Shown: positions 16,756 through 25,974 of the stretch, one piece after another | How positions within the stretch are numbered: the first letter of the stretch is position 1 | How the letters are laid out: each line of letters opens with the position of its first letter | Program-made: the position numbers and the translations under genes | Assembly (NCBI GenBank): GCA_016458225.1 | Contig: JAEMGR010000026.1 | Span: forward strand, 1-64,000 | Direction: 5' to 3' | Source: Myxococcaceae bacterium JPH2 | Lineage (GTDB): Bacteria > Myxococcota > Myxococcia > Myxococcales > Myxococcaceae | DNA length: 64,000 bases | The notes under the pieces: model-generated | What the model was told of the DNA's origin: nothing | Database searches by the model: none | The model's input: the letters and a program-made list of their open reading frames with translations, nothing else

Positions 16756-19700
16756 ATGCACACACCCCAGTCCCTTCCTCCCCCACGGCGGACGACTCGC
16801 GATGCGAGCGGTCCGCGGACCGCAGCGGGCCTGTTGGCCATGCTGTGTGTCGCGCTCCTCGCGCCGTCCGCCCACGCCGAGCCGGACACCATCGGCCTTG
16901 GCTCGGGTGTGAACGGAGTCCTGAACGTCACCGCCGCTGGCAATACCCAGAGCGCCAACCGCTACGCGCTGGTGACGGCCAACATCGCGGCGGGGCAGAG
17001 CACGGCCACGGTGGACACCTCCACGGGCTTCGCCGTGAACAACCTGGTGATGGTGTTCCAGGCCACGGGCATCACCACGGTGCCGCCCTCGGGCAACCAG
17101 GCGGACATCGACCTGACGGGCAACGTCGTGGGGCGCTGGGAGTTCGCGTACATCCAGACCATCACGGGCACGGCGCCCAACATCACGGTCACCTTCAAGA
17201 AGCCGATGAAGGCCGCGTTCGCCGCCAATGTCACGCAGCTGGTGCTCGTGCCCCAGTACACCAACGTGACCATCAACGCGGGCTCCACCCTCGTCGCGCG
17301 GCAGGCCTGGAACGGGTCGACGGGTGGCGTGCTCGTCTTCCTCGCCAACGGAACGGTCACCAACAACGGCACCATCAGCGCGGCGAACCAGGGCTTCCGC
17401 GCGGGTCTCTTCCGCAACGGCTCCGGTGACGGGTGCGTGCTGCTCGATGAGCCGTACCCGGGCGGTACGTCCAAGGGCGAGGGTGTGGCTCCGTCGCTCT
17501 ACAGCAACGAGCCGGATCCGGACCTCCTGCCTCCCGGTACGACGGGCTACGGCAACATCACCAACGGTGGTGGTGGCGGCATCTGCCACAACTCAGGTGG
17601 CGGCGGTGGTGGTAGCGCCGGCCCGGGCGGCAAGGGTGGCCGGACGTGGACGGGCGATGACGATGGGACCCCGAAGCCCTCGCGTGACGTGGGCGGGCGC
17701 GGTGGCGTGCGCATGACCTTCACCCCGCTGGACCACCTGCTCTTCGGTGGTGGTGGCGGCGCGGGTCACTCGAACGACAACGTGGGTGGTGCTGGTGGCG
17801 CAGGTGGCGGCGTCGTGTTCGTCCGCGGTGCGTCGCTGGCTGGCACGGGACTCATTACCGCGAACGGTGCGAACGGCGCCAACTCGCGCGGCACGGGCAA
17901 CGATGCCGCGGGCGGCGCGGGCGCGGGCGGCACGGTGTCGCTGCGGTTCACGGGCGCCTGCTCGGCGAATACTGTCACGGCGAACGGCGGCAACGGCGGT
18001 AGCACGAACTTCAACACGCACGGCACGGGCGGTGGCGGTGGTGGTGGCCGCATCCTGATTCAGGGCAACACGGTGACCTGTGCGCCGACCGTGACGGGCG
18101 GTGCCGCGGGTATGCAGCCGGATGCGACCGCCATCGATGGGCGGACGTACGGCGCGATTCCTGGCTCGCTGGGCGTCATCACGGTGCTGACGGGCGCCTT
18201 CCCGACGACTGTCGCCGCTCCGGTGGTGGTGACTCCGGCGAACGGCTCCACGACCTCTTCGTCAACTCCGGTCATCTCGGGCACGGCGCCGGCCAACTCC
18301 ACCGTCATCATCTCGGTGGACGGTGTGGAGCTGGGGCGTGTCACGGCCGATGCTGCCGGCAACTTCACCTTCACGCCGAGCACCTCGCTGACCTCTGGCG
18401 CCCACACGGTCAACGCGACCGCCGAGGTCCAGGGGGTCAGCAGCCCGCAGAGCAACACGAACACCTTCACCATCGTCGTGGATACGACGCCTCCGGATAC
18501 GCTCTTCACCTCCACGCCGCCCGCGGTGTCGAACTCGTCCAGCGGGACGTTCGACTTCAACTCGAACGAGACGGGTGTGACGTACGAGTGCAAGCTCGAC
18601 GGCGCGGCGACGTTCACCGCGTGCGCGGATCCGTCGACGTTCACGGGCCTTGCGAATGGCAACCACACGCTGCAGGTCCGGGCTCGCGATGCGGCCGGCA
18701 ACGTGGACCCGACTCCGGCCAGCTACACGTGGACGGTGGACACGACGGCTCCGGATACGCTCTTCACCTCCACGCCGCCCGCGGTGTCGAACTCGTCCAG
18801 CGGGACGTTCGACTTCAACTCGAACGAGACGGGTGTGACGTACGAGTGCAAGCTCGACGGCGCGGCGACGTTCACCGCGTGCGCGGATCCGTCGACGTTC
18901 ACGGGCCTTGCGAATGGCAACCACACGCTGCAGGTCCGGGCTCGCGATGCGGCCGGCAACGTGGACCCGACTCCGGCCAGCTACACGTGGACGGTGGACA
19001 CGACGGCTCCGGATACGCTCTTCACCTCCACGCCGCCCGCGGTGTCGAACTCGTCCAGCGGGACGTTCGACTTCAACTCGAACGAGACGGGTGTGACGTA
19101 CGAGTGCAAGCTCGACGGCGCGGCGACGTTCACCGCGTGCGCGGATCCGTCGACGTTCACGGGCCTTGCGAATGGCAACCACACGCTGCAGGTCCGGGCT
19201 CGCGATGCGGCCGGCAACGTGGACCCGACTCCGGCCAGCTACACGTGGACGGTGGACACGACGGCTCCGGATACGCTCTTCACCTCCACGCCGCCCGCGG
19301 TGTCGAACTCGTCCAGCGGGACGTTCGACTTCAACTCGAACGAGACGGGTGTGACGTACGAGTGCAAGCTCGACGGCGCGGCGACGTTCACCGCGTGCGC
19401 GGATCCGTCGACGTTCACGGGCCTTGCGAATGGCAACCACACGCTGCAGGTCCGGGCTCGCGATGCGGCTGGCAACGTGGACCCGACTCCGGCCAGCTAC
19501 ACGTGGACGGTGGACACGACGGCTCCGGATACGCTCTTCACCTCGACGCCGGCGCTGAACTCCAACTCGAACGTGGGCGTCTTCGACTTCAACTCGAACG
19601 AGACGAACGTGACGTACGAGTGCCAGTTGGATGGCGCGGTGCTCTTCACCCCGTGCGCGGATCCGTCGACCTTCACGGGCCTGTCGCAGGGCAGCCACAC

Positions 19701-25974: not shown

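What the first reader, a model, noticed from the sequence alone, without database searches (positions are those of the whole stretch)
16756..25974. Adhesin and OmpA protein joined as one frame through an internal MYXO-CTERM motif
MYXO-CTERM tripartite motifs (Cys, hydrophobic span, Arg cluster) normally form the very C-terminus. Here the motif at Cys2429 is followed, with no stop, by a second signal-like hydrophobic segment and a full OmpA barrel with type-3 repeats and an OmpA domain. The Arg cluster of the first motif doubles as the basic n-region of the second signal. This suggests a polyprotein: myxosortase and signal peptidase could release an anchored adhesin and an outer-membrane partner in 1:1 ratio. 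The alternatives are internal translation from ATG 24100 or a recent loss of a stop codon.
Basis: partly seen in the sequence, partly recalled or inferred. Interest (0 to 1): 0.85.

Follow-up and report, generated by a model that had tools for sequence, protein, structure and literature searches.

The report
Adhesin and barrel in one polyprotein
A myxobacterial gene between ftsA and ftsZ encodes a surface adhesin and its likely outer-membrane partner as one chain with two cutting signals in the middle; the same layout is already in print for Myxococcus xanthus, and here it proves to be conserved across many relatives.

Summary
One open frame (16756-25974, 3072 aa) runs from an AgmC-type adhesin through an internal MYXO-CTERM motif (Cys2429) and a second signal-peptide-like segment (ARA|Q2484) into a TraB-like barrel, TSP3 repeats and an OmpA domain. 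It is not a lost stop codon: in 54 of the 89 family genomes examined at ftsZ the gene is there, and 54 of 54 keep one frame across the junction, with the Cys and AxAQ. An internal start is unsupported: ATG 24100 is a start-type codon in 8 of 54, and no candidate start after the Cys matches AGGAGG at more than 4 of 6. The gene is the positional ortholog of MXAN_5598, whose internal MYXO-CTERM and proposed surface anchoring are in print (Guo, Haft and Wall 2025), so the kind is known. Added here: conservation, an invariant signal-peptidase-like site, two further such fusions in this genome, two-gene forms of related pairs, and a tree in which the separate barrel genes of the family nest among fused ones. 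Best reading: a polyprotein cut by myxosortase and signal peptidase I into a lipid-anchored adhesin and an outer-membrane partner. Cutting is inferred, not shown.

The parts
16756..25974 (+). whole open frame, 3072 aa: adhesin - MYXO-CTERM - second signal - barrel - TSP3 - OmpA
16756..16878 (+). N-terminal signal peptide (aa 1-41, AHA|EPD), read by eye
   Evidence: translation; no signal predictor run
16840..18111 (+). AgmC N-terminal domain (aa 29-452)
   Evidence: NF047640 396.2 bits
18478..20022 (+). tandem array of Ig-like repeats, period 258 bases, 6.0 copies
   Evidence: Big_13
22936..24030 (+). TSP3-type (DxDxDG) repeat tail of the adhesin, approximate limits
   Evidence: PF18884 from aa 2065 and CglD-like match from aa 2061; end read by eye
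24034..24123 (+). internal MYXO-CTERM: Cys2429 (24040), hydrophobic span, Arg cluster RRARR
   Evidence: G.GC in 54 of 54 orthologs
24106..24204 (+). second signal-peptide-like segment; its n-region is the Arg cluster; predicted signal peptidase I cut after Ala2483 (ARA|Q)
   Evidence: AxAQ in 54 of 54
24310..25032 (+). outer-membrane beta-barrel, TraB-like (strands of the predicted model, aa 2519-2759)
25302..25565 (+). TSP3 repeat array between barrel and OmpA domain
   Evidence: PF02412
25624..25914 (+). OmpA peptidoglycan-binding domain (aa 2957-3053)
   Evidence: PF00691
15232..16467 (+). ftsA, upstream neighbour
   Evidence: TIGR01174
26227..27516 (+). ftsZ, downstream neighbour
   Evidence: TIGR00065

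Best explanation
The gene makes one long precursor that is cut into two partner proteins at the inner membrane. The N-terminal signal peptide starts export of the adhesin. The MYXO-CTERM helix stops transfer, with its Arg cluster left in the cytoplasm. The same Arg cluster then acts as the n-region of a second signal peptide that reopens export and threads the barrel into the periplasm, so the junction is a short helical hairpin. Signal peptidase I cuts after Ala2483 and frees the barrel-TSP3-OmpA protein for insertion into the outer membrane and binding to peptidoglycan. Myxosortase (MrtX, present in this genome) cuts next to the lipidated Cys2429 and frees the adhesin for type II secretion and surface anchoring. 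The two products probably work as a pair, like TraA and TraB, and are made in equal amounts because they come from one chain. Shown by computation: one frame, both signal-like segments, their conservation, the presence of mrtX. Inferred: both cuts, topology, pairing and ratio.
For: All 54 orthologs found at ftsZ are one frame across the junction, in seven genus groups. G.GC is found in 54 of 54. AxAQ is found in 54 of 54, with a charged loop of 5-14 residues (3-6 K/R, at most one D/E) and a second uncharged run of 15-26 residues. dN/dS is below 1 in both junction pieces in each of the four genus groups measured (0.29-0.33 and 0.53-0.56 in the two largest). mrtX is present (444.7 bits, cut-off 180). 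The model has two adjacent helices (40-58, 61-78) before the barrel, at low confidence. Related pairs exist as two genes: an adhesin ending in a terminal MYXO-CTERM beside a barrel gene with its own signal-like start, clear in 3 of the 11 separate barrel loci scanned; and in this genome an ORF taken as TraA, with a MYXO-CTERM-like tail, overlaps traB by ATGA. In print: MrtX cuts the MYXO-CTERM of TraA, in E. coli too, and the authors propose processing of the N-terminal part of MXAN_5598 (PMC11980579). MXAN_5598 is listed in a table of outer-membrane-vesicle cargo (PMC4158809, one passage).
Against: No cut product has been observed for this gene or, in what I read, for MXAN_5598. The MYXO-CTERM score is borderline. 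No signal-peptide predictor was available; the second signal is judged by eye and by simple hydropathy. The second n/h segment evolves fast (dN/dS 0.53-0.56 in the two largest groups; in g19 codon position 2 differs about as often as position 1), as signal peptides do, but relaxed constraint would look alike. In 8 of the 11 separate barrel loci scanned no intact MYXO-CTERM was seen near the barrel, so the barrel does not always keep an adhesin beside it. The vesicle listing, as seen, does not say which half was detected.
Confidence: 0.72

Rival explanations
1. One uncut chain: the adhesin stays covalently joined to its barrel, and the hairpin is tolerated in a membrane.
For: The frame is unbroken in 54 of 54, and no cutting has been shown.
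Against: Two hydrophobic helices in the inner membrane would tether a barrel meant for the outer membrane (inference). AxAQ is kept in 54 of 54 although the segment before it varies. Related pairs are separate genes.
Confidence: 0.12
2. An internal translation start near 24100 gives a separate barrel protein, alongside a full-length product.
For: An in-frame ATG exists at 24100. M. xanthus traA and traB are two overlapping ORFs (PMC3325183 passages).
Against: That column holds a start-type codon in only 8 of 54. From the Cys to the end of the second hydrophobic run, the commonest start-type column reaches 25 of 54. No in-frame start after the Cys has more than 4 of 6 matches to AGGAGG. No sigma-70-like site was found at the junction (other promoter types not covered).
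Confidence: 0.1
3. Recent loss of a stop codon, or an assembly error.
For: The window genome is a draft of 144 contigs.
Against: The same frame is found in 54 of 54 orthologs, single-contig genomes among them (contig numbers), and in Myxococcus xanthus AM003 (L279).
Confidence: 0.01
4. Only the adhesin half uses its signal (myxosortase cuts), while the barrel half remains bound by an uncut second helix or is degraded.
For: The published proposal speaks of the N-terminal portion only (PMC11980579).
Against: The barrel and OmpA domain show dN/dS values in the range of the rest. AxAQ is invariant. Related barrels stand alone with signal-like N-terminal segments.
Confidence: 0.05

Closest known systems
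MXAN_5598 of Myxococcus xanthus (Guo, Haft and Wall 2025, PMC11980579)
   Same: Large adhesin, internal MYXO-CTERM, barrel, OmpA domain, next to ftsA and ftsZ. The window gene lies between ftsA and ftsZ, and the M. xanthus AM003 copy upstream of ftsZ is fused in the same way (L279).
   Different: The paper calls it atypical, a possible gene fusion, and discusses anchoring of the N-terminal part. In what I read (abstract, Results section 5, Discussion part 1 of 2, term searches) it names no second signal peptide and no polyprotein.
TraA and TraB (outer membrane exchange)
   Same: MYXO-CTERM surface receptor plus barrel-TSP3-OmpA partner; reported 1:1 stoichiometry (PMC12045341 passages).
   Different: Two genes with a 4-base overlap (here; for M. 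xanthus). The window barrel part scores 310 bits against a TraB cut-off of 700, and the true TraB lies elsewhere in the genome (997 bits).
AgmC (NCBIfam NF047640)
   Same: N-terminal domain over cut-off.
   Different: The model covers the N-terminal domain only; gliding function not tested. Two full-text searches with the name AgmC gave no paper.
Cytochrome b/c1 polyprotein FbcH of Bradyrhizobium (recalled; not found)
   Same: Bacterial precursor split by signal peptidase at an internal signal (recalled).
   Different: No sortase-type cut and no outer-membrane products (recalled).

Membership tests
MYXO-CTERM protein (TIGR03901) | motif with invariant Cys, hydrophobic span, Arg cluster, over the 20-bit cut-off | tested here: met
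   20.3 bits on the trimmed segment only; 15.3 and 17.9 bits in longer contexts, so met narrowly. G.GC in 54 of 54
MYXO-CTERM protein (TIGR03901) | motif at the extreme C-terminus | tested here: not met
   643 residues follow the Cys
MYXO-CTERM protein (TIGR03901) | N-terminal signal peptide | tested here: inconclusive
   read by eye; no predictor run
MYXO-CTERM protein (TIGR03901) | a myxosortase in the genome | tested here: met
   NF040593 444.7 bits, cut-off 180
MYXO-CTERM protein (TIGR03901) | cut by MrtX and anchored to the surface | not testable with these tools
   needs experiment
MXAN_5598 ortholog group | gene next to ftsA and ftsZ with adhesin, internal MYXO-CTERM, barrel, OmpA | tested here: met
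TraB (NF033763) | score over 700 bits | tested here: not met
   310.4 bits for the part after the cut site; separate TraB at 997.3 bits
AgmC N-terminal domain (NF047640) | score over 275 bits | tested here: met
   396.2 bits
polyprotein cut by two proteases | two mature products from one translation | not testable with these tools
   inferred from signals and conservation

The most novel reading that the evidence does not exclude
Myxococcota use a general kind of double-processed polyprotein: MYXO-CTERM adhesin, shared Arg loop, second signal peptide, outer-membrane partner. Within the Myxococcaceae the one-chain form is the older state and separate genes arose from it. Myxosortase and signal peptidase thus set the pairing and ratio of surface adhesins with their outer-membrane partners, including partners unrelated to TraB.
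Probability: 0.5. Interest if true: 0.68.

Novelty: new member of a known kind. Interest (0 to 1): 0.48.

Why it matters
To my knowledge, polyproteins cut into partner proteins are rare in bacteria. If both cuts occur, this gives a simple genetic handle (one gene, two sites) to ask how a surface adhesin and its outer-membrane anchor are sorted and matched, and it does so inside a cell-division cluster. It also warns that annotation by the C-terminal domain alone ('OmpA domain protein', as MXAN_5598 is listed in PMC4158809) hides giant adhesins.

Tried and rejected
Recent stop loss and assembly error: rejected by 54 of 54 in-frame orthologs. Internal start: no conserved start codon or Shine-Dalgarno site. 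The dN/dS values (NG86) are relative only, because codon bias at high GC distorts them; the OmpA domain itself gives 0.39-0.41 in the two largest groups. Filing the barrel as TraB: rejected by the cut-off. Calling the downstream half of the Kelch fusion (L165) a TPR-barrel: no Pfam match, so it stays a reading by eye. Literature searches that gave nothing useful: 'AgmC', fbcH, internal sorting signals, bacterial polyprotein or internal signal peptide, MYXO-CTERM with polyprotein (no paper).

Tree: the full tree (63 rows) has long branches among distant rows, and 4 changes between fused and separate. The reduced tree leaves out 11 distant separate rows and gives 2; leaving them out favours a fused root. 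'Separate' was set by rule (at most 250 residues of open frame before the barrel); two of those rows (L132 and L292, near-copies) run to the contig edge, so their state is unknown. With them not counted the changes stay 4 (20 fused, 41 separate) and 2 (20 fused, 30 separate). Several rows are identical copies from two sources (52 distinct sequences among the 61 counted). The direction of change is suggested, not shown.

Full report
What is there. The frame at 16756-25974 is real and unbroken. In order it holds an N-terminal signal peptide (by eye), the AgmC N-terminal domain (NF047640, 396 bits), many bacterial Ig repeats, DxDxDG repeats, the internal MYXO-CTERM at Cys2429, a second hydrophobic segment ending in ARA|Q, a barrel, TSP3 repeats and an OmpA domain. 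It lies between ftsA (15232-16467) and ftsZ (26227-27516), both in the same orientation. The window's genus appears to be that of Citreicoccus inhibens: the only same-genus genome among those searched (G014) carries this gene on a contig of 171232 bases, the length of the C. inhibens M34 record in which the closest named relative lies.

Conservation. I fetched the stretch upstream of ftsZ in 88 other genomes of the family; with the window that makes 89 of the 96 genomes searched. Two genomes had no ftsZ hit at the threshold, and five others were not fetched, their hits being partial or near the start of a contig. A barrel relative sits upstream of ftsZ in 54 of the 89. In 46 of the 54 ftsA was found on the other side; in the other 8 the contig ends before ftsA is reached. 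In 27 of the remaining 35, ftsA and ftsZ are direct neighbours (at most 210 bases between the matched stretches). In three the gap is about 4.6 kb, in one about 12.9 kb, and in four no ftsA was found within the 17 kb fetched. So the gene looks like an insertion into an old ftsA-ftsZ pair. All 54 copies read through the junction in one frame; seven of them reach the contig edge at their 5' end. G.GC is present in 54 of 54. AxAQ is present in 54 of 54; median values are 23 residues from the Cys to the first Arg or Lys, 5 Arg or Lys in the loop, and a second uncharged run of 21 residues. The adhesin half is not always homologous: the AgmC domain was not detected by tblastn in the genus groups g7 (7 loci) and g8 (1 locus), although the junction and barrel are there.

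Read-through or restart. The junction (12 residues before the Cys to IDVQxYK) has 8 different lengths in the 54 copies; that all keep frame is the open frame seen from another side. ATG 24100 corresponds to a start-type codon in 8 of 54. In the columns from the Cys to the end of the second hydrophobic run, no start-type column exceeds 25 of 54, and no in-frame start after the Cys has more than 4 of 6 matches to AGGAGG. A GTG conserved in 49 of 54 encodes the Val of IDVQ, behind the cut site, and could not supply a signal peptide. No sigma-70-like promoter was found at the junction. dN/dS is below 1 on both sides of the Arg loop (0.33 and 0.56 in 26 g19 rows, 0.29 and 0.53 in 16 g5 rows, also below 1 in g1 and g7); these values are relative only. 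Differences per site are highest at codon position 3 in both pieces, although in the n/h region of g19 position 2 is not low (0.279 against 0.246 at position 1). I conclude that ribosomes most likely read through, and that the second segment is a fast-evolving signal peptide.

Related pairs as two genes. In two g19 genomes the adhesin gene ends with GHGCST...LRRLRR and a stop 58 bases before the barrel's own frame opens; in a third the adhesin stop lies 30 bases inside the open frame of the barrel. That is 3 of the 11 separate barrel loci scanned; in the other 8 no intact motif was seen near the barrel. In g5 genomes G027 and G015 and in Corallococcus sp. AS-1-6, barrels of the same clade are fused to an adhesin. 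In this genome the ORF before traB, taken as TraA from its place and Cys-rich sequence, ends in a MYXO-CTERM-like tail (15.2 bits, below the cut-off) whose stop overlaps the start of traB by ATGA, as reported for M. xanthus (4 bases, PMC3325183 passage). On a tree of 63 barrel-OmpA rows the fused or separate label changes at least 4 times; on a reduced tree of 52 rows, without 11 distant separate rows, it changes twice, with the separate genes nested among fused ones. Two rows at a contig edge do not alter these numbers. Some separate copies keep remains of adhesin repeats or of the Arg loop before their barrel (L133, L136, L137, L295). This suggests that in this family separation followed fusion. 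The published paper considers a fusion of two genes; the two views can both hold at different depths, and the root of my tree is not secure.

Not the only one. A scan of this genome with TIGR03901 gave 26 hits at E up to 1. Three are internal, with a Cys and a following hydrophobic segment: the window gene; a 1364-aa frame that joins a DUF11/Ig adhesin to a TraB-like barrel without OmpA domain (L166 2055-6149); and a 1354-aa frame that joins a Kelch-Ig protein to a part with no Pfam match (L165 4040-8104, minus strand). The Kelch fusion is also present in the one same-genus genome (91% identity). In three other genomes internal motifs are 2 of 32 (G027; 30 examined, one more, one not examined), 2 of 28 (G037) and 2 of 21 (G062). 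Two hits followed by a long open frame but without a Cys (one in G037, one in G000) were set aside as false. Of the nine internal motifs, seven are followed by a TraB-like barrel, one by TSP3 repeats with a weak, truncated OmpA match (L261), and one by the unmatched part. More distant fusions occur in L308, L346 and L141 (G049).

Structure. The predicted model of the junction to the end (674 aa, 21 sequences, mean pLDDT 61) shows two adjacent helices at residues 40-58 and 61-78, a series of long strands at 121-361 and an OmpA-like fold at the end. The helices have low confidence (blocks of about 43-48). The best solved matches are the periplasmic OmpA part of Capnocytophaga and, for the barrel, FapF (TM-score by target 0.56-0.67).

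What is known. Guo, Haft and Wall 2025 (PMC11980579; I read the abstract, Results section 5, Discussion part 1 of 2 and searched passages) show that myxosortase cuts the MYXO-CTERM of TraA, also in E. coli. They describe MXAN_5598 as an ORF with an internal MYXO-CTERM between a large adhesin region and a barrel with OmpA domains, adjacent to ftsA and ftsZ, and propose that its N-terminal part is processed and anchored. They also say that internal motifs occur in rare cases. The window gene is the ortholog by position and architecture. MXAN_5598 is listed as an OmpA domain protein in a table of outer-membrane-vesicle cargo (PMC4158809, one passage). I found no paper in the held library that holds both MYXO-CTERM and polyprotein, and the term polyprotein does not occur in the main text of the Guo paper.

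Verdict. Cutting, ratio and function remain to be tested.

Noticed in passing
L165 4040-8104 minus (contig C3 of the window's genome): Second internal MYXO-CTERM fusion: Kelch-Ig adhesin, then a second signal-like segment, then under 300 aa without any Pfam match. Also present in the same-genus genome.
   Followed up: partly
L166 2055-6149 plus (contig C3): Third internal MYXO-CTERM fusion: DUF11/Ig adhesin joined to a TraB-like barrel that lacks the TSP3 and OmpA part.
   Followed up: partly
window 18478-20022: Ig repeat array, period 258 bases, 6.0 copies; four neighbouring units read alike in protein, so the copy number may be unreliable in a draft assembly.
   Followed up: no
L137 (contig C9), barrel open frame at 9461-11419: Separate barrel-OmpA gene whose first residues look like a decayed piece of adhesin repeat (NADGAGLFNGTEDMNGYGSLD), as if cut down from a fused gene.
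   Followed up: partly
L261 (G062): Internal MYXO-CTERM over the cut-off (21.2 bits) followed by a signal-like segment and a protein with TSP3 repeats and a truncated, weak OmpA match.
   Followed up: no
window 8916-9776: IS3 family transposase (227 bits, cut-off 160), about 7 kb upstream of the gene.
   Followed up: no
L087, L088, L097, L099 (g3 genomes): No ftsA within 17 kb upstream of ftsZ and no barrel relative there: the ftsA-ftsZ interval holds something else or is rearranged.
   Followed up: no
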